Below are positions 4,830 through 13,509 of a stretch of 48,890 bases of DNA, one piece after another. The number at the start of each line of letters is the position of its first letter. Within the stretch, counting starts at the first letter, position 1. This DNA comes from Chitinophagaceae bacterium (GTDB taxonomy: Bacteria > Bacteroidota > Bacteroidia > Chitinophagales > Chitinophagaceae). The stretch lies in the NCBI GenBank assembly GCA_020847395.1, contig JADLCD010000059.1, positions 1-48,890 of the forward strand, in the 5' to 3' direction. The notes beneath the pieces are model-generated. The model did no database searches. It saw only the letters and a program-made list of their open reading frames with translations, and had not been told where the DNA came from. The translations under genes and the position numbers were made by a program.

Positions 4830-5987
4830 ATGAAAAAAATTAGTTTCGTTCTTTTCTTTTATATAGTAATATCTCATCATGCTAATGCACAGGTGGAATT
4901 ATGCCAGGGTGCATATTTTACCCAAGAACAGGGTAAAGCTTTTTTGGATAATCATATTCCTGCATCCTTAACTGCATGGCAGCAAAGAGCTGCGCAGATA
5001 CGCAATAATATGAGAGAAGGAATGGAGCTTCAAAAAATGCCGGCTAAGCCAACCTCAAAACCAATTATTAATGGCAAAAGAATAATGGATGGCTATTCTA
5101 TAGAAAATGTGGTGTTTGAAAGTTTACCTGGTTTGTATGTAACCGGCAATCTGTATCGCCCATTAAAAAAGCAAAAAAAATATGCAGGTATCTTATGTCC
5201 TCATGGTCATGGCGATAATCCCCAGGGCAGATTTCGTGAACAAACCCAAAAACGTTGTGGTACGCTTGCCCGCATGGGCGCTATTGTATTTGTGTGGGAT
5301 ATGATTGGGCAGGGCGACTCTAAACAATGCGAACATAAAATGGCAAAGGGCGTAAAATTGCAAACCATCAACAGCATCCGGTCGCTTGATTTTTTATTGT
5401 CGCTGCCTGAAGTTGATTCCTCACGGGTAGGGGTAACCGGAGAATCAGGTGGGGGAACTCAAACCTTTATTTTAGCGGCGCTTGACCCAAGGGTTAAAGT
5501 TGCCGTGCCTGTCGTGATGGTATCATCTTATTTTTTCGGCGGTTGTACCTGCGAAAGCGGTATGCCCATTCATAAAAAAGGAGATTTTCAAACTAATAAT
5601 GTAGAAATAGCGGCGCTTACCGCGCCACGGCCAATGCTGCTTATATCTGACGGCGACGACTGGACTAAGCAAAATCCTGAAGTGGAATATCCTTTTATGC
5701 AAAAAATATATCAATTGTATAATAGTAAAGATAATGTGTCGCTGGTGCACCTTGCAGATGAAAAGCACGATTATGGACCTTCAAAACGAAAGGCGATGTA
5801 TGCTTTTATGGCTAAAACACTTGGGCTTAATTTAAAAGCCGTTCAGAACACTGCGGGGAATATTGATGAAACCCACGTAAAGGTGCTGGAGCAGAAGGAT
5901 TTGGAAGTATTTAATGCCAAAAGCCCACGCCCTTCTAATGCGGTAATGGGCGATGAAGCAGTGATTAATCTTCTGAATGCCAATTAG
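4830..5987 (+). CDS. Secreted alpha/beta-hydrolase, acetyl-xylan-esterase-like
   Basis: A 385-residue protein with a signal peptide (cleavage after about residue 20, HHANA). It has an alpha/beta-hydrolase fold. PHGHG at 124-128 probably forms the oxyanion region. Ser206 in GESGGG is the nucleophile, Asp276 or Asp277 in SDGDDW the acid, and His313 in EKHDYG the base. This layout fits the large esterases that Bacteroidota secrete to remove acetyl or other acyl groups from plant polysaccharides. No polysaccharide-utilisation genes are adjacent, so the substrate is unknown. A Cys pair at 239 and 241 may be structural. Divergent from the acyl-CoA dehydrogenase gene. Confidence 0.8.
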   Translation: MKKISFVLFFYIVISHHANAQVELCQGAYFTQEQGKAFLDNHIPASLTAWQQRAAQIRNNMREGMELQKMPAKPTSKPIINGKRIMDGYSIENVVFESLPGLYVTGNLYRPLKKQKKYAGILCPHGHGDNPQGRFREQTQKRCGTLARMGAIVFVWDMIGQGDSKQCEHKMAKGVKLQTINSIRSLDFLLSLPEVDSSRVGVTGESGGGTQTFILAALDPRVKVAVPVVMVSSYFFGGCTCESGMPIHKKGDFQTNNVEIAALTAPRPMLLISDGDDWTKQNPEVEYPFMQKIYQLYNSKDNVSLVHLADEKHDYGPSKRKAMYAFMAKTLGLNLKAVQNTAGNIDETHVKVLEQKDLEVFNAKSPRPSNAVMGDEAVINLLNAN

Positions 5988-6151
5988 GGTTATGCAGAAA
6001 CGGGAAACGACGAATGATAAACGCTAAACGAACTATTCTCACATTTCGTCTCTCTTTTCAAGCCCTGAATAGTTTCACCAAAAATTCCGCACCCTGCGCA
6101 ACCATTTATACTATTGTGCCGTAATATTATACGTAAAGTTTTCAGGCAAAT

Positions 6152-6727
6152 TTGGAACTAACAAATCTTATAGAGGGTTGTGTTGGCAATAACGAAAAGT
6201 GCCAAAAGGTATTTTATGAAAAATACCTCGGGTTTGTATTGAAAACAGTGTACAGGTACGTGAGCAGCTATGAATCGGCAAACGAAGTGAGCAACGACGC
6301 CTTTATAAAAATCTTTAAGTCGTTTGTAAAATTTGATTATAAAAATGCCGTAAATCCTGAAATGCTCCTGATGGCCTGGATGCGTAGAATTATAGTAAAT
6401 ACTGCGATAGATTATTTGCGGGTAAGCCAGGCGCAAAAACGATATCAGCCTCTTGCAGAGCTGAACGAAAATCACACAGAAAAAGTAGTAGTTAGTTCAG
6501 ATGAAAAGGTACTGTATAAGGAGTTGATTGAACTGATTAAAAAGCTGAGCCCTTCTTACAGAGCGGTGTTTAATATGTATGTGATTGATGGGTATACGCA
6601 CCAGGAAATTGCAAAAACTTTGGGTATTTCTGTAGGAACATCAAAATCAAACCTTGCGAGAGCAAGGGCTATACTGCAAAAATACCTGGTAAAAGATAAT
6701 AAGGACAACGTGCTATGTTTGACATGA
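6152..6727 (+). CDS. ECF-type RNA polymerase sigma factor
   Basis: A 191-residue group-4 sigma factor. Region 2 spans roughly residues 20-95 (FYEKYLGFVL to AIDYLRV) and region 4 roughly residues 125-180, with the helix-turn-helix GYTHQEIAKTLGISVGTSKSNLARAR. It should direct RNA polymerase to the genes its partner regulates. The start is TTG at 6152: a TAA in the same frame at 6134-6136 excludes earlier starts and there is no ATG at a sensible place. The stop overlaps the ATG of the next gene (ATGA), which indicates translational coupling to the predicted anti-sigma factor. It heads an apparent operon running to 11093. Confidence 0.93.
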   Translation: MELTNLIEGCVGNNEKCQKVFYEKYLGFVLKTVYRYVSSYESANEVSNDAFIKIFKSFVKFDYKNAVNPEMLLMAWMRRIIVNTAIDYLRVSQAQKRYQPLAELNENHTEKVVVSSDEKVLYKELIELIKKLSPSYRAVFNMYVIDGYTHQEIAKTLGISVGTSKSNLARARAILQKYLVKDNKDNVLCLT

Positions 6728-8316
6728 AGAATGACGATATGGATGAACTTTTCCGCAAAGCCGCGGAGAATGTAGAGATGGATACCGGCAAGGCTTCCAA
6801 TTGGGATGCTGTGAATAAAGCATTGCACAGCTCTGATGATTTTAATGTGGAAGAGGCCGATAAGGAAAAGAAGAAACGCAGGTTTTTCTTCTGGTGGTTT
6901 TTGCTTTTACCGGCCTTGTTACCGGCATATTATGGTTGGAAAAAATTGAGCTCAAACAATACAGCGTATATAGCGGTAAAAACAACACTCACTAAAACTG
7001 CAGGAGAAGCGAATGATAAAGCTGCTGATTCAAAACCTGCTGAAAATGCCGGTAAAGCAACTGCAAATACTGACCAATTATCCGGCAATGCCACTACCAG
7101 TAAAACAGAAAATATAAGTATCCCTTCTTTAAAAGAACCTCCCGGCAATAACAATACTGCCATTGAAAAAGATAATAGTTTGAGCGAAAGAAATGCTATT
7201 TCCAACAAAAAAAATACAGTACAAAACAACCCCGGGGAAAACTTTATCGAACATAAGGGAAGTAAGGAGTATGATGACAGGTTAGCAAATAAGGCTGTAT
7301 TAAATAATAAGGAAAAAAGTATTAGCGGTAAAAACATTGCAGCAAATAATGACAAAAAAAATGTTTCTGTAAATACATACAATAACCGGTTTGAAAAAAA
7401 TAAAAAAAATACTGATAAAAACAACCAACGCAGCACAAGTATCGTAGACAATGATGGAAACTTAAATGATAAGATATCTAAGCAGCATATAGAAAATAAT
7501 AAACCAAATAATGCTGGCGTAAGCATACCTGGGAGATACGCCAACAATATTATTACCGGAAGTTTTCAATATGTATTTATTGATTATGATGGCAAGATGC
7601 TTCCGGTAATATCTTTTGAGAAAAATATTTCCACAATAGCACCAGGTATTGTAGATTTAAAAGCGACCAATAACGATAGTTTATTACAACAAAAGAAAAA
7701 TAAGGTTGACGAAAAGCAGCAACATTATTTTTATATAGCCGCAGTGGTTGCGCCTGATTTAAGCTCAGTTAAGCTTCAGCGCATAGCCGGCACCGGTAGT
7801 AGTGTAGGTTTATTATTAGGTTATCGCATAAATAACCGCTGGCATATTGAAACCGGGGCAATGTGGGAGAAAAAGATTTATTACACAAAAGGTGAGAATT
7901 TTGACAAGAGCAAATTGAATCCTTATTTAAGAAGTGTAGAGCTAATGAATATTGATGGTAATTGTCATATGATTACCATACCATTAAATGTTAGGTATAA
8001 TATATCAACAGGAAAGAAAAGCAATTGGTTTGTGGCAACCGGTATGTCGTCTTACCTGATGAACAAGGAGCATTATGATTTTACCTATCGTCATAGCGCA
8101 GGCGGTCAGCCAATGACAAAAGGATATGACTATAAAACACCTGAAAAAAACTGGATGACTGTTATTAATCTGAACGCCGGATATGAACGAACCTTTTTGA
8201 AAACATTCAATTTTAGAATAGAGCCGTATTTCAGAATTCCTGTTTCCAAAGTTGGTACAGGCAACCTTTCACTAACAAGTGGCGGCATATACATTGGCAT
8301 AGGCAAAAAATTCTAA
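6724..8316 (+). CDS. Predicted dual-membrane-spanning anti-sigma factor with C-terminal outer-membrane barrel
   Basis: From the ATG at 6724 (an in-frame ATG at 6715 is also possible) the protein has 530 residues. Residues 1-53 are a charged, helical cytoplasmic segment suited to binding the sigma factor. Residues 54-72 (FFFWWFLLLPALLPAYYGW) are one inner-membrane helix preceded by KKKRR, which predicts that the rest is periplasmic. Residues 75 to about 330 are low-complexity and rich in Asn, Lys and Ser, long enough to cross the periplasm. Residues 334-530 alternate as a beta-barrel and end in IYIGIGKKF, a C-terminal Phe expected of outer-membrane barrels. The order cytoplasmic tail, one helix, disordered linker, barrel matches what I recall as the Dma class described in Bacteroides thetaiotaomicron. 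The anti-sigma role is inferred from topology and the ATGA overlap; no classical anti-sigma domain was recognised. Confidence 0.8.
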   Translation: MKNDDMDELFRKAAENVEMDTGKASNWDAVNKALHSSDDFNVEEADKEKKKRRFFFWWFLLLPALLPAYYGWKKLSSNNTAYIAVKTTLTKTAGEANDKAADSKPAENAGKATANTDQLSGNATTSKTENISIPSLKEPPGNNNTAIEKDNSLSERNAISNKKNTVQNNPGENFIEHKGSKEYDDRLANKAVLNNKEKSISGKNIAANNDKKNVSVNTYNNRFEKNKKNTDKNNQRSTSIVDNDGNLNDKISKQHIENNKPNNAGVSIPGRYANNIITGSFQYVFIDYDGKMLPVISFEKNISTIAPGIVDLKATNNDSLLQQKKNKVDEKQQHYFYIAAVVAPDLSSVKLQRIAGTGSSVGLLLGYRINNRWHIETGAMWEKKIYYTKGENFDKSKLNPYLRSVELMNIDGNCHMITIPLNVRYNISTGKKSNWFVATGMSSYLMNKEHYDFTYRHSAGGQPMTKGYDYKTPEKNWMTVINLNAGYERTFLKTFNFRIEPYFRIPVSKVGTGNLSLTSGGIYIGIGKKF

Positions 8317-8337
8317 TCAACATTTATTTAAAAACTG

Positions 8338-8748
8338 ATGCAAAAAAAACTAATCATTTTTTTGGCAGGGGTCATCATATGTCTTGGTTTTGCCTGGTAC
8401 TGGTATAATAAACCACGGGAAGGAGTTGCGTCAAAATCAACTGATGCCAGCGTAAGAGCATTACAATTGTATGAGGCATTTAATAACAATGAAGCCGAAG
8501 CAAATAAAATTTATTTAAATAAAGTTATCGAAGTTAAAGGGATGGTAGATGACCTTGCCAATTCAGGGGAAGAAATCATTCTTACACTGGGATTACAACC
8601 AACAGGTGGTGGAATAAGTTGCAGGTTTTCTCCAGGTAAAGAAGTGGTTGAGAAAAATATTACGAAAGGACAGGAGATAACAGTAAAGGGCAGGTGTACA
8701 GGATTTAATATAGATGTTAATCTTACGGATTGTGTAATTGCAAAATAA
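8338..8748 (+). CDS. Membrane-anchored OB-fold (tRNA_anti-like) protein
   Basis: A 136-residue protein with one N-terminal membrane helix (about residues 4-23) facing the periplasm. The remainder resembles the tRNA_anti-like OB-fold family of Bacteroidota: YEAFNNNEAEANKIYLNKVIEVKG, then a beta-rich core, then VKGRCTGFNIDVNLTDCVI. The family name describes the fold; a periplasmic anchored copy is unlikely to bind tRNA. Cys residues at GISCRF, GRCTG and TDC could form a disulfide. It follows the anti-sigma gene by 21 bases and precedes the cytochrome gene by 8, so it belongs to the same operon. Molecular role unknown. Confidence 0.78.
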   Translation: MQKKLIIFLAGVIICLGFAWYWYNKPREGVASKSTDASVRALQLYEAFNNNEAEANKIYLNKVIEVKGMVDDLANSGEEIILTLGLQPTGGGISCRFSPGKEVVEKNITKGQEITVKGRCTGFNIDVNLTDCVIAK

Positions 8749-8756
8749 AATATAGT

Positions 8757-9125
8757 ATGGCAAAAAAGTTATTGTATGCAGGCATTATCGCTACAGCTAT
8801 TGTTTGGATAAGCGCATGTTCCAAAGATTCAGAAGATGAGTTTACAACCAGCCAATGCAATACCGATAACATGAAATACAGCACGGATATATTGCCAATC
8901 ATTCAAACAAATTGCTATGGCTGTCATGGCAATGGTATTGTTACAAATGGTATAGACCTGGATGGATACACGAAGATGAAGGTGCAGGCAGATAATGGAA
9001 ACCTGGTAGGCGTCGTATCTCACGCCAATGGATATCCGCCAATGCCCCAGGATGCAGCAAAACTTTCTGATTGTGATATCAACAAAATAAAATCCTGGGT
9101 GCAAAACGGAGCGCTCAATAATTAA
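8757..9125 (+). CDS. Lipoprotein c-type cytochrome, single haem
   Basis: From the ATG at 8757 the protein has 122 residues. A signal peptide ends in a lipobox (WISAC) with lipidated Cys21. Haem c attaches at C53-x-x-C56-H57 (NCYGCHG), and Met96 in PPMPQ is a likely axial ligand. The ILPII..NCYGCH..L.GY pattern and the C-terminal IKSWVQNGA helix are typical of small Bacteroidota cytochromes. An earlier frame start at 8730 would put extra residues before the signal peptide and is less likely. It should be membrane-anchored in the envelope, transferring single electrons. Extra Cys34 and Cys106 may pair. The next gene lies 67 bases downstream. Confidence 0.9.
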   Translation: MAKKLLYAGIIATAIVWISACSKDSEDEFTTSQCNTDNMKYSTDILPIIQTNCYGCHGNGIVTNGIDLDGYTKMKVQADNGNLVGVVSHANGYPPMPQDAAKLSDCDINKIKSWVQNGALNN

Positions 9126-9192
9126 GTAAGCATAAATTATAAATATTACCATTTGCGTATGCTGCGCCTTTGCGTGAAACAAAAAATTAACA

Positions 9193-9738
9193 ATGAAAAC
9201 AAAGCTATTATTACTGGTATTACTTAGTATAGGTTATTCAAATGCAAATGCCCAGTTATACATCACCAAAACCGGTTTTGCAGGCTTTTATTCAAAAACT
9301 CCGTTGGAAGATATTAAAGCAGAGAACAACCAGGTTGTAGCAATGATTGACACTGATAAAAAACTACTTGCCTTCTCCATGCTGCTCAAAAGTTTCACTT
9401 TCAGGAAAGAGTTGATGCAGGAACATTTTAATGAAAATTATGTGGAAAGCGACAAATACCCCAAGGCTGTTTTTAAAGGGAGTTTTACCGGCGTTATAGA
9501 CCTGCAAAAACAACAAGTATACAACATACAGATAGATGGCACTATTACTTTACATGGTGTAGATAAGAAAATCTCTATACCTGCAACAATTGAAATGCGC
9601 AATGGAGTTTTAACAGGCGTAGCTAAATTTCAACTTGTACCGCAGGATTTCAATATCAGTATACCTTCTTTGGTAAGCGATAAAATAGCAAAGCTGATTG
9701 ATGTAGAAATTAAAGTTGAATGCAATCCTAAAAAATAA
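9193..9738 (+). CDS. YceI-family periplasmic protein
   Basis: A 181-residue protein with a signal peptide (cleavage after SNANA). The body has the YceI signature: FYSKTPLEDIKAEN, an FTFRKELMQEHFNENYVESDKYPKAVFKG block, then GTITLHGVDKKISIPAT and FNISIPSLVSDKIAK. YceI proteins are lipocalin-like barrels; characterised members bind long isoprenoids, including quinone tails. Beside a cytochrome and a Rieske protein, a quinone or isoprenoid ligand is an attractive inference but is not shown by the sequence. The next gene starts 5 bases after the stop, so the two are almost certainly co-transcribed. Confidence 0.92.
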   Translation: MKTKLLLLVLLSIGYSNANAQLYITKTGFAGFYSKTPLEDIKAENNQVVAMIDTDKKLLAFSMLLKSFTFRKELMQEHFNENYVESDKYPKAVFKGSFTGVIDLQKQQVYNIQIDGTITLHGVDKKISIPATIEMRNGVLTGVAKFQLVPQDFNISIPSLVSDKIAKLIDVEIKVECNPKK

Positions 9739-9743
9739 ATTAT

Positions 9744-10640
9744 ATGAAATACCGGATACCAACTACACTACTCTTGTTTTTATTTTCCTGTAATACCATT
9801 TTTTCGCAAGACTCCACGTTGATGAAGATGATGGAAGATTCTTTAATGACCGGTCAAAAAAACATGTATGTAACCGGAACTTTTAAAGGAATACATATCA
9901 TTAATCTTCATTCCATTGAAGCTCCGGCAAAAAAGGAATTGATTTTTATGATTATGCACCGTTTCGGAAAAATAAATGATGGTGAGTATCAATTTTTTGG
10001 ATTAGACAATGCCACTATGCGTATGGGTTTTGATTACGGGCTTACCAACACAGTTGCTATTGGCATCGGCAGAAGCACATTCGAAAAAACTTTTGACGGA
10101 TATATTAAAGCAAAATTGCTAAGGCAAGCAGATGGCTCCAATAAAACACCCATCTCTGCTACCGCATTATTGGGTATTGCACATACAACATTAAAGTATG
10201 CTGATAAGCCCTATATGAATACAAAGTACAGAACACAGTATACCGCACAACTTTTATTGGCAAGAAAAATAAACAGGAACTTATCTATACAACTTTCACC
10301 AACATGGTTGCATTACAATCTGGTGCCTACGGTTGCGGATAAAAATGATTTGTTTGTATTGGGTATGGGCGCGAGAATGAAAATCACCAAAAGGGCAAGC
10401 ATCAATATAGAATACAGTTACCTGCCCGCTGAGCAAATCAAATCTTTTAAAGTATATAACTCATTAAGTGCAGGTTTTGATATAGAAACCGGCGGACACG
10501 TTTTCCAGGTGCATGTAACAAACTCACAAGGCATGGTTGAGCCGCTTTATATGGGCCGCACCACCGGCAGTTGGAGCAAGGGAGATATTTATTTCGGTTT
10601 CAACATTTCCCGCTCATTCAAACTCGGTAAAAAGAAATAA
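9744..10640 (+). CDS. DUF5777-type beta-barrel outer-membrane protein
   Basis: A 298-residue protein with a signal peptide ending near residue 21 (SCNTIFSQ). The body is made of alternating beta-strands separated by short turns, with the conserved FKGIHIINLHSIE, MHRFGKINDGEYQFFGLDNATMRMG and IGIGRSTFEKTFDGYIKAKLL blocks of the DUF5777 family. The C-terminus (GDIYFGFNISRSFKL) looks like the last strands of a barrel. Outer-membrane location is inferred from fold. Function is not established for the family; here it is wedged between YceI and Rieske genes, consistent with a barrel that accommodates or supports an envelope redox complex. Confidence 0.87.
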   Translation: MKYRIPTTLLLFLFSCNTIFSQDSTLMKMMEDSLMTGQKNMYVTGTFKGIHIINLHSIEAPAKKELIFMIMHRFGKINDGEYQFFGLDNATMRMGFDYGLTNTVAIGIGRSTFEKTFDGYIKAKLLRQADGSNKTPISATALLGIAHTTLKYADKPYMNTKYRTQYTAQLLLARKINRNLSIQLSPTWLHYNLVPTVADKNDLFVLGMGARMKITKRASINIEYSYLPAEQIKSFKVYNSLSAGFDIETGGHVFQVHVTNSQGMVEPLYMGRTTGSWSKGDIYFGFNISRSFKLGKKK

Positions 10641-10667
10641 TGCTTAATCATCAATAAAAACTACAAT

Positions 10668-11093
10668 ATGGAACGCAGGAAATTTTTAACTGAAATGGGC
10701 CAGGTAACAGCAGCGGCTTGCTCAATAGGCTTTTTGGCATCCTGTTCCAAATCTGGCGATACTTCAACCACAAACCCAGGAACCGGTGGCAATACTAAAC
10801 TCACAGCTAATCTTTCCACAGAACTTACCTCAGTGGGCAGTTCAAAAATTAATGGAAACGTTATAGTGGTAAGAACGGCTACCGGCAATACGGCATCATC
10901 ATTTTCGGCTTTGAGTTTGGTATGTACGCATCAGCAATGCACCGTTGCATATGATGCATCTGATAATGATTTTAAATGCCCTTGCCATGGAAGCGAGTAT
11001 AGTATTTCAGGAGCAGTTACACAGGGGCCTGCTACTGTAGCACTTACCAAATACACAGTATCTATAAACGACAATACGCTTACCGTAAGTTAA
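10668..11093 (+). CDS. Rieske [2Fe-2S] lipoprotein
   Basis: A 141-residue protein. The N-terminus ERRKFLTEM has the twin-arginine pattern and leads to a lipobox-like FLASC with Cys26, suggesting folded export and lipid anchoring. Cluster ligands are Cys86 and His88 (CTHQQC) and Cys104 and His107 (CPCHGSEY), with Cys91 and Cys106 placed for the usual stabilising disulfide. It is smaller than the bc1 Rieske subunit and resembles free-standing arsenite-oxidase or QcrA-like Rieske domains. No molybdopterin subunit or cytochrome b gene is adjacent, so its partner is probably within this operon. Last gene of the sigma-factor operon, 27 bases after the barrel gene. Confidence 0.93.
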   Translation: MERRKFLTEMGQVTAAACSIGFLASCSKSGDTSTTNPGTGGNTKLTANLSTELTSVGSSKINGNVIVVRTATGNTASSFSALSLVCTHQQCTVAYDASDNDFKCPCHGSEYSISGAVTQGPATVALTKYTVSINDNTLTVS

Positions 11094-12267: not shown

Positions 12268-13509
12268 ATGAGTGAAGTATTAAACCTGATAAAGAAAACA
12301 TATAATGCTACTCCTGCCTTGCGTGCAGTGGAAGACAGGCAGTTAAAAAAAATATTGCTGATGCTTGCAGACGAATTGGAAGCGCAGCAAAAAACCATCT
12401 TAAAAGCGAATGAAAAAGATGTAGCAAAACAAAAGCCCGGCGACCCTAAAACAGACAGGCTGAGGCTTGATGAAAAAAGAATAAAAAATATTGCCAACGG
12501 TATACGTAAAGTAAGCAGGCTGCCTAACCCGTCTGAAAAAATTATTGAAAGAAAAAAATTACCCAATGGTTTGCTGCTTGAAAAAAGAACAGTGCCTTTA
12601 GGTGTTGTTGGCGCTATATTCGAATCAAGACCCAATGTAACTTTTGATATTGCCGCACTTTGCCTTCGCAGCGGCAATGCCTGTGTATTGAAAGGCAGTA
12701 TAGAAGCGGAGCAAACCAATCTTGCCGCTATACAATTAATACATAGCGTACTTAAAAAAAATAAGCTGCCTGCGGAAGTTGTTACATTGTTGCCCGCTGC
12801 AAGGGAGTCGGTGAGCGAATTATTTAATGCAGGTAAATATGTTGATGTATTGATTCCAAGAGGTTCTGAAAGCCTGATAAATTTTGTGCGCAAAAACAGC
12901 CAGGTGCCTGTTATTGAAACAGGTGCAGGTGTTTGCCATGTATACGTAGAGCAAAAAGCCGATATTGGCAAAGCGGTAAAGATTGTAACGAATGCTAAGG
13001 TATCAAGACCTTCAGTTTGCAATGCAATGGATACGGTAATTGTTGACAAAGCCATCGCTCCTGAATTTTTACCCGAATGACAGCAGGCGTTAAGCAAGTA
13101 TGATGTAGAAATATTTGCTGATGAGCCTTCCTTTAAATTGTTGAAAGGCTATCCTAAACTGAAAAAGGCAAGTGCTGAAGATTTTGGCAGGGAGTTTTTA
13201 GATTTGAAATGCGCGGTAAAAGTGGTAAAGGGTATTGATGAAGCGCTTACACATATCCGTGAGCATTCCACCAAACATTCTGAAGCTATTGTTACGGAAG
13301 ATAAAAAGAGCGCGGAGTTGTTTTTGAAGGAAGTAGATGCAGCAGCGGTATATCATAATGCTTCCACCCGTTTTACCGATGGTGAGGAATTTGGCCTCGG
13401 CGCAGAAATAGGTATATCAACACAAAAACTGCATGCAAGAGGCCCCTTCGCACTGGAAAAATTAGTTACAGAGAAATGGATACTGAGAGGGAATGGGCAG
13501 GTGAGATAA
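12268..13509 (+). pseudogene. proA: Glutamate-5-semialdehyde dehydrogenase, interrupted by an in-frame TGA
   Basis: Reduces glutamyl phosphate to the semialdehyde in proline synthesis. Residues 1-270 read through the NADPH-binding region and the catalytic Cys251 (RPSVCNAMDT), then meet TGA at 13078-13080. The same frame continues without another stop for 142 codons (13081-13506), giving a conserved C-terminus: [33 protein letters not shown] and [17 protein letters not shown]. The stop removes the oligomerisation region and part of the active site. The lack of any other damage points to a very recent point mutation, a sequencing error or stop-codon readthrough. TTA, CGA or TGG could each become TGA by one change. 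Confidence 0.9.

What the first reader, a model, noticed from the sequence alone, without database searches (positions are those of the whole stretch)
6152..8316. ECF sigma factor coupled to a predicted two-membrane-spanning anti-sigma factor
The gene overlapping the sigma factor (ATGA) encodes about 53 cytoplasmic residues, one membrane helix with KKKRR on the cytoplasmic side, about 260 disordered residues and a roughly 197-residue barrel ending in Phe. One polypeptide would link outer membrane to cytoplasm, so a surface or barrel-assembly signal could reach the sigma factor directly. A related class (Dma) has, as I recall, been described in Bacteroides thetaiotaomicron; a Chitinophagaceae version upstream of redox genes would be a new setting.
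Basis: partly seen in the sequence, partly recalled or inferred. Interest (0 to 1): 0.72.

Follow-up and report, generated by a model that had tools for sequence, protein, structure and literature searches.

The report
Two-membrane anti-sigma factor with redox operon
A bacterium related to Terrimonas carries one protein predicted to reach from its outer membrane to its gene-control machinery and to switch on a small set of electron-handling envelope proteins; the arrangement is kept in many relatives, and a single conserved cysteine in the outer barrel hints at what it might sense.

Summary
Window 6152-6727 encodes an ECF sigma factor; the overlapping 6715-8316 gene encodes a 533-residue anti-sigma factor with a short N-terminal helical region, one membrane helix (55-79), a roughly 256-residue disordered tether and a confidently modelled 8-strand barrel (338-532) resembling OmpA, NspA and OmpW. 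This is the published Dma/Reo architecture.

What appears new is its subfamily. In a sigma-factor tree the window falls in an 85-row group spanning several families of its class. Of 80 scorable rows, 52 have an envelope cassette downstream (YceI and DUF5777 barrel, usually cytochrome c and an OB-fold protein, sometimes Rieske), against 0 of 10 other Dma-like pairs. A GCAAC-N15-18-CGT promoter match precedes sigma in 59 of 75 near and 5 of 10 far loci, against 0 of 10 others. It also precedes 5 of 25 unlinked cassettes in Dma-bearing genomes, and 0 of 9 in genomes without Dma. The barrel has one near-invariant cysteine (C417, 84 of 88), predicted to face the lumen.

Best reading: an autoregulated outer-membrane-to-cytoplasm switch for an envelope redox module, possibly sensing through C417. 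Sigma binding, membrane location and signal are untested.

The parts
6098..6123 (+). candidate ECF promoter GCAACC-N16-CGTA, 29 bp before the sigma start
   Evidence: GCAAC-N15-18-CGT before sigma in 59 of 75 near loci (shuffle mean 0.70), 5 of 10 far loci, 0 of 10 other-subfamily loci
6152..6727 (+). ECF sigma factor, TTG start
   Evidence: Pfam, NCBIfam sigma70-ECF over its cut-off
6715..8316 (+). Dma-type anti-sigma factor, 533 aa
6715..6873 (+). residues 1-53: N-terminal, presumably cytoplasmic, anti-sigma-like region; family consensus DDMDELFRKAAE-YPLKT--DWD
   Evidence: two helices in the model at low to moderate confidence; conserved, 36% mean identity to 85 relatives; function inferred
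6877..6951 (+). residues 55-79: membrane helix, KKKRR just before it
   Evidence: net positive charge before the helix in 80 of 86 relatives
6952..7719 (+). residues 80-335: disordered tether
   Evidence: pLDDT mostly under 55; 136-384 residues in 86 relatives, 11% identity
7720..8313 (+). residues 336-533: 8-strand barrel of outer-membrane type
   Evidence: Pfam OMP_b-brl_2 34 bits, cut-off 27
7963..7965 (+). codon of C417, the window protein's only cysteine, on strand 4 with M419; M449, K387 and Y389 on neighbouring strands
   Evidence: C417 84 of 88, Y389 88, K387 85, M449 79, M419 77 of 88; lumen-facing inferred from alternation of hydrophobicity
8338..8748 (+). tRNA_anti-like (OB-fold) protein with a hydrophobic N-terminus
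   Evidence: Pfam PF12869 2.2e-20
8757..9125 (+). small c-type cytochrome-like protein, predicted lipoprotein (ISAC-SKDSEDE), CxxCH site; ORF opens at 8730, ATG at 8757
   Evidence: Pfam Cytochrome_CBB3 21.1-21.3 bits, under the cut-off of 27; CxxCH in 45 of 45 relatives
9193..9738 (+). YceI-like protein, signal peptide by sequence
   Evidence: Pfam PF04264 3.5e-14
9744..10640 (+). DUF5777 membrane beta-barrel protein
   Evidence: Pfam PF19089 5.8e-92; 48-row alignment
10668..11093 (+). Rieske [2Fe-2S] protein, predicted lipoprotein
   Evidence: Pfam PF00355 1.8e-11

Best explanation
The locus encodes a Dma/Reo-type switch. The anti-sigma factor's N-terminal helices hold the ECF sigma factor at the inner membrane, a disordered tether crosses the periplasm, and an 8-strand barrel sits in the outer membrane. 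A change at the outer membrane felt by the barrel releases the sigma factor, by pull, conformational change or proteolysis. Free sigma factor reads a GCAAC-N16-CGTA promoter in front of its own gene and so makes more of itself, its inhibitor and an envelope redox cassette (OB-fold protein, cytochrome c-like lipoprotein, YceI, DUF5777 barrel, Rieske). Computed here: gene order, predicted fold, the recurring cassette, the conserved and subfamily-specific promoter match, the same match before some unlinked cassettes, and the single conserved cysteine. Inferred: sigma binding, outer-membrane insertion, release mechanism, that the cassette carries electrons, and that the C417 site is the sensing site. 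I put about 0.35 on the C417 site being the sensor. The confidence below is for the core (a Dma-type switch that controls itself and the cassette).
For: Topology and barrel. ECF sigma gene directly upstream in 95 of 98 loci with a called Dma. YceI+DUF5777 downstream in 52 of 80 scorable subfamily rows against 0 of 10 other Dma-like pairs (naive Fisher 8e-5). Promoter match before sigma in 59 of 75 (shuffle mean 0.70, maximum 4), 5 of 10 far, 0 of 10 other. Promoter match before unlinked cassettes in 5 of 25 loci of Dma genomes (shuffle mean 0.24, maximum 3 of 300) and 0 of 9 in genomes without Dma. In the genus, Dma and the DUF5777 gene are in the same 8 of 12 genomes. Cassettes not next to Dma often lie by another signalling pair, a Reg_prop/Y_Y_Y kinase with a LytTR regulator: 11 of 34, against 2 of 52 Dma loci with a DUF5777 gene (naive Fisher 5e-4). 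Tether at least 136 residues in 86. C417 pattern. In print: genes near dma2 are among the most upregulated in a dma2 deletion (PMC13088901); ecfO-reo respond to envelope attack (PMC9308784).
Against: No binding, localisation or expression data exist for this protein. 28 of 80 scorable subfamily rows have no YceI+DUF5777 downstream, and 20 of 25 unlinked cassettes in Dma genomes lack the promoter match. The own genome shows no enrichment of the promoter pattern (27 matches, 27 for the reversed-pattern control). In the first set the looser pattern also matched the opposite strand in 5 of 39 upstream regions. C417 is missing in 4 of 88, and one of these (L193) still has the cassette; C417 is present in 26 of 28 rows without the cassette, so it marks the subfamily rather than the cassette. 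M419 is V or I in 6 of 10 far members. The cytochrome call rests on CxxCH and Pfam matches under the cut-off. The N-terminal helices are modelled at low to moderate confidence. Many loci are related, so counts are not independent and the Fisher values are naive.
Confidence: 0.7

Rival explanations
1. On the signalling step: the barrel is a general reporter of outer-membrane assembly. When the assembly machinery or the membrane is damaged the barrel fails to insert, the tether is cut and the sigma factor is freed. It senses no particular molecule, and C417 is structural. (This can be true together with the core of the best explanation.)
For: P. vulgatus ecfO-reo genes are strongly induced by the toxin BcpT, whose response overlaps that to bacteroidetocin A, described there as binding and inhibiting BamA (PMC9308784, passages; PMC13114119, passages). 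The barrel has the ordinary 8-strand fold.
Against: A general reporter need not keep one lone cysteine with Y389 and K387 across families, and no assembly factor or chaperone is among the operon proteins scanned.
Confidence: 0.4
2. On the signalling step: the barrel only fixes the tether, and a periplasmic protease cutting the tether, followed by cleavage in the membrane helix, is the signal-receiving step, as in regulated proteolysis of other anti-sigma factors.
For: Tether sequence drifts freely (11% identity), compatible with cleavage; such proteolysis is known for other anti-sigma factors (abstract start of PMC4183432 in a search listing).
Against: The barrel is as conserved as the anti-sigma region (40% and 36%) and keeps a cluster predicted to face the lumen, more than an anchor needs.
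Confidence: 0.25
3. The redox cassette is only a neighbour: the sigma factor controls itself and unrelated genes elsewhere.
For: 28 of 80 subfamily rows lack the cassette next door; the own-genome pattern search is not enriched; in two loci without the cassette (L053, L065) the match also lies before other genes.
Against: The cassette follows in several families, appears to share the promoter of sigma, and carries the match in some genomes where it is unlinked.
Confidence: 0.07
4. The protein is cut into two pieces soon after synthesis, so no single chain spans both membranes.
For: Nothing tested here excludes it; no cleavage-site search was made (no call).
Against: Tether length has a floor of 136 residues in 86 relatives, which fits a spanning constraint.
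Confidence: 0.1

Closest known systems
Dma1/Das1, Dma2/Das2, Dma3 of Bacteroides thetaiotaomicron (PMC13088901 seen in part; Pardue 2024 PNAS not held, known through it)
   Same: N-terminal anti-sigma domain, membrane helix, long disordered tether, C-terminal barrel; ECF sigma gene adjacent (Dma2); genes near dma2 induced when dma2 is deleted
   Different: Reported outputs are vesicle formation, NigD and polysaccharide loci; here the output is inferred to be an envelope redox cassette. Dma3 carries its sigma factor as a domain. Sequences were not compared directly.
EcfO-Reo of Bacteroides fragilis and Phocaeicola vulgatus (PMC9308784, PMC13114119 passages; Ndamukong 2013 not held)
   Same: An anti-sigma factor spanning from cytoplasm to outer membrane; EcfO protects B. 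fragilis against oxidative stress (title of the cited paper)
   Different: The P. vulgatus passages speak of NigD and O-antigen/glycosyltransferase genes; no cytochrome/YceI/DUF5777/Rieske operon is mentioned in the passages seen
FecIR-type cell-surface signalling (abstract starts in a search listing)
   Same: An outer-membrane event reaches an ECF sigma factor
   Different: Uses a separate TonB-dependent receptor and an anti-sigma factor of another make; neither was found here
Reg_prop/Y_Y_Y histidine kinase plus LytTR regulator next to the same kind of cassette in relatives (L101, Pfam)
   Same: By position, may regulate the same kind of cassette
   Different: A two-component system instead of Dma-ECF; seldom in the same locus as Dma plus DUF5777 (2 of 52 for the kinase, 4 of 52 for the regulator)

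Membership tests
[quoted passage not shown]
   Pfam OMP_b-brl_2 3.8e-8 over its cut-off; model and structure matches; membrane location itself not tested
[quoted passage not shown]
   helix 55-79; positive charge before it in 80 of 86; orientation inferred from charge
[quoted passage not shown]
   residues 80-335 low pLDDT; 136-384 residues in 86 relatives
[quoted passage not shown]
   only conservation and pairing seen
[quoted passage not shown]
   adjacent ECF sigma factor found; no ECF21 group model was used, so the group number is not tested
[quoted passage not shown]
   those sequences were not fetched
FecR-type cell-surface signalling | FecR domain in the anti-sigma factor | tested here: not met
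   Pfam scan of the 533-aa protein listed only two OMP barrel families at E up to 1
FecR-type cell-surface signalling | TonB-dependent receptor in the operon | tested here: not met
   none among the eight proteins scanned at 4830-11093; the rest of the genome was not searched for one

The most novel reading that the evidence does not exclude
A subfamily of dual-membrane anti-sigma factors senses a redox-active agent, metal or heme directly at the outer membrane through a lone lumen-facing cysteine (C417, with M449, K387, Y389 and often M419) in a small barrel, and passes this in one chain to an ECF sigma factor that builds an envelope electron-handling module. It would be a thiol- or metal-based sensor in the outer membrane wired straight to transcription.
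Probability: 0.28. Interest if true: 0.85.

Novelty: new variant of a known kind. Interest (0 to 1): 0.62.

Why it matters
What Dma-type proteins sense is open: PMC13088901 asks that future studies find the substrates sensed by Dma2. This subfamily offers a sharp handle: a narrow predicted output (one cassette), a defined promoter for reporters, and one residue to change (C417). It also ties the widespread YceI-DUF5777-cytochrome cassette, of unknown role, to signalling, and shows it beside two alternative signalling systems.

Tried and rejected
Regulon by pattern: GCAACC-N14-17-CGTA gives 27 matches in the own genome, the same as the reversed control. The best other candidate outside a gene (L071, before a 319-aa protein) was kept in 2 of 15 loci counting its own, so it was rejected as chance.

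Sigma-70 promoter and terminator scans of the operon were at or near shuffle level (20 against 19.0; 6 against 4.2), so no operon end was called.

Surface export of the cytochrome: its start CSKDSEDE resembles the Capnocytophaga export signal, but the optimum stated there is C-X-K-(D/E)2-X (PMC5080379, passages) and the window has K-D-S, so this is only suggestive. My lipobox pattern matched 33 of 45 relatives and is crude.

A copper-site reading of C417/M419/M449 was weakened because M419 is V or I in 6 of the 10 far members. Where C417 is lost (4 of 88) M419 and M449 are lost too, but these four are two pairs of close relatives (tree).

The profile search of solved structures gave weak matches only, to the helix and tether part of the profile (best E 0.015). 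A structure of DUF5777 was sought and not obtained.

Literature: no held paper contains DUF5777 or YceI with Rieske and Bacteroidetes. A search for Chitinophaga, anti-sigma factor, beta-barrel and ECF (three of four) found 60 papers, of which the ten listed are on other topics. The library lacks most subscription papers, so this is weak evidence of absence.

Caveats on counts: loci L031-L070 and L118-L195 overlap in part (same contigs). Six named loci (L157, L173, L181, L186, L192, L194) end too soon to score the cassette; five are the unscored rows of the tree and L194 is not in it. L133 and L162 are cut at contig ends and were dropped from the tether count. The ten other-subfamily pairs are Dma-like by N-terminal region, tether and adjacent sigma gene. 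Of six scanned at full length by Pfam, L228, L231 and L232 show a barrel and L225, L226 and L227 do not; the C-terminal part of L226 alone does, so the full-length scan can miss it; L229, L230, L242 and L244 were not scanned. The first tree run scored all far loci as empty by construction; corrected. The tree is a quick one with several long branches and a midpoint root. The 34 cassettes not next to Dma were picked by hand: 14 among the higher-identity rows without an adjacent Dma, and 20 from Dma genomes; on the 14 alone the kinase count was 8, and adding the 20 lowered the share to 11 of 34. In L276 a promoter match lies before the second cassette gene and was not counted.

Full report
What is there. 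Window 6152-6727 is an ECF sigma gene (TTG start) and 6715-8316 a 533-residue protein that overlaps it by 13 bp. Downstream on the same strand follow an OB-fold (tRNA_anti-like) protein, a small cytochrome c-like protein with a lipoprotein start, a YceI-like protein, a DUF5777 barrel and a Rieske protein. The cytochrome match is under Pfam's cut-off (21.3 bits, cut-off 27) and rests on its CxxCH site, present in 45 of 45 relatives examined. Gaps are 27 bp or less except 67 bp before the YceI gene.

How common. In a sample of 147 genomes of the same family, 76 have a relative at E 1e-5 or better. A profile search of 295 genomes of the class found matches in 96 at 1e-6, many of them to the N-terminal part and tether only. 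The window's own genome has six sigma factors of this type at E below 1e-45, the window's included. Three of the others head Dma-like genes (L225-L227); of these the one on C54 (L226) has a barrel match in its C-terminal part. So the architecture is widespread and the window's copy is one of several.

A distinct subfamily with a redox cassette. Of the 40 loci fetched first, 19 have YceI and DUF5777 genes after the anti-sigma gene. Of 78 named loci, 45 have cytochrome c, YceI and DUF5777 matches within 5 kb downstream, 44 of these also the OB-fold gene and 5 also Rieske; L121 has all but the cytochrome. Named carriers include Terrimonas sp. NS-102 (all cassette genes of the window, 81-86% identity), Chitinophaga filiformis, C. 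pinensis, Filimonas zeae, Pinibacter soli, Segetibacter aerophilus and Puia dinghuensis. In a sigma-factor tree of 95 rows (quick method) the window falls in an 85-row group (SH-aLRT 98). Of its 80 scorable rows 52 have YceI and DUF5777, against 0 of 10 rows outside. The group reaches other families: L236 has Dma, cytochrome c, YceI, DUF5777; L233 and L234 have Dma, YceI, DUF5777, Rieske; L235 and L243 have YceI and DUF5777; L238 has Rieske and YceI; L237, L239, L240 and L241 showed none of the cassette genes. The label changes 12 times on the tree against a shuffled mean of 29. Within the genus, Dma and the DUF5777 gene occur in the same 8 of 12 genomes; as they are linked, one event can remove both.

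Promoter. Upstream of the sigma gene lies GCAACC-N16-CGTA (6098-6123). A GCAAC-N15-18-CGT match lies upstream of sigma in 26 of 39 loci of the first set (shuffle mean 0.29, maximum 4; 5 of 39 on the opposite strand). In the second set it is found in 59 of 75 loci of the window's group (shuffle mean 0.70), 5 of 10 loci of other families in the subfamily, and 0 of 10 loci of other subfamilies. [quoted passage not shown] In the cassette-bearing loci of the first set no match was found between the genes downstream of sigma, which fits one autoregulated transcript. The strongest regulatory evidence is in trans: where the genome has Dma but the cassette lies elsewhere, 5 of 25 cassettes carry the match upstream of their first gene (shuffle mean 0.24, maximum 3 in 300), and 0 of 9 in genomes without Dma. 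Against this, 20 of 25 lack it, and in the own genome the pattern is no more frequent than its reversed control (27 and 27).

Another regulator at the same cassette. Of 34 cassettes not adjacent to Dma, 11 have a large sensor kinase and a response regulator in the same fetched stretch (8 of the first 14, 3 of the next 20). One pair was typed as Reg_prop, Y_Y_Y, His_kinase and LytTR, Response_reg. Of 52 Dma loci with a DUF5777 gene, 2 have such a kinase and 4 such a regulator (naive Fisher for the kinase 5e-4). The same module thus seems to lie under two signalling systems; that the kinase controls it is inferred from position. In a further Dma group (L112-L116) a DUF5777 gene lies near Dma on the other strand, and in L114 the gene after Dma has SprB and cytochrome matches just under Pfam's cut-offs.

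A candidate sensing site. The window protein has exactly one cysteine, C417. It is present in 84 of 88 aligned subfamily members; cysteine is otherwise almost absent from the barrel (0.03% of positions); 80 of 88 have exactly one cysteine beyond residue 100. Y389 (88 of 88), K387 (85), M449 (79) and M419 (77) are also strongly kept. All ten far-family members keep C417, K387 and Y389, nine keep M449, and four keep M419, the rest having V or I. In strand 4 the odd residues after M419 (421 to 429) are polar or small on average and the even ones from 420 mostly hydrophobic, so C417 and M419 probably face the lumen; strand pairing would put M449 beside M419 (inference, no coordinates were available). 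Of the ten pairs of other subfamilies, seven have no cysteine beyond residue 100. This makes a lone thiol, near the outer rim by strand count, a natural candidate for a redox, electrophile or metal sensor. It does not prove it: C417 is as common in rows without the cassette (26 of 28) as in rows with it (51 of 52), and it could be structural.

Mechanism. The protein most likely holds its sigma factor at the inner membrane and lets go when the barrel registers a change; sigma then drives its own operon and the cassette. Support from print: deletion of dma2 strongly induces neighbouring genes (PMC13088901, discussion); loss of the similar anti-sigma factor in P. vulgatus activates a small regulon that is also induced by the toxin BcpT (PMC9308784, passages). 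What the cassette does is unknown. A cytochrome c-like protein, a Rieske protein and YceI (a family known to bind isoprenoid lipids, recalled) point to electron or quinone handling in the envelope, perhaps against oxidative damage.

What is known and what is new. The class is known: Dma1-3 in B. thetaiotaomicron and EcfO-Reo. The PNAS 2024 paper on Dma1 and the 2013 paper on EcfO were not held and are known here only through papers that cite them. I found no description of this subfamily, its cassette, promoter or cysteine in the searches made, which cover only the held library and of which mostly listings were seen. I therefore rate it a new variant of a known kind.

Noticed in passing
window 12268-13509 (+): A gamma-glutamyl-phosphate-reductase-like gene (proA by look and by position after a glutamate-5-kinase-like gene, recalled) is interrupted by an in-frame stop near 13080; it could be a pseudogene or an assembly error.
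   Followed up: no
   Followed up: no
G000 contigs C59, C118, C181, C54, C57: Five further sigma factors of the window's type; those on C181, C54 and C59 head Dma-like genes, and on C57 a barrel match under the cut-off follows.
   Followed up: partly
L112-L116: Another Dma group beside a DUF5777 gene on the other strand; in L114 the gene after Dma has SprB and cytochrome matches just under Pfam's cut-offs.
   Followed up: partly
L101, L102, L105, L106, L108-L111, L277-L279: The same YceI-DUF5777-cytochrome kind of cassette with a kinase and LytTR-type regulator like the Pfam-typed L101 pair in the stretch, instead of an adjacent Dma.
   Followed up: yes
L142 (same locus as L037), L133, L039: A Rieske gene follows the anti-sigma gene without the rest of the cassette.
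   Followed up: no
DUF5777, window 9744-10640: Very strongly conserved motifs (HRFG; ETGGHVF; invariant H72 and H252 in 48 rows) in a barrel family of unknown function.
   Followed up: partly
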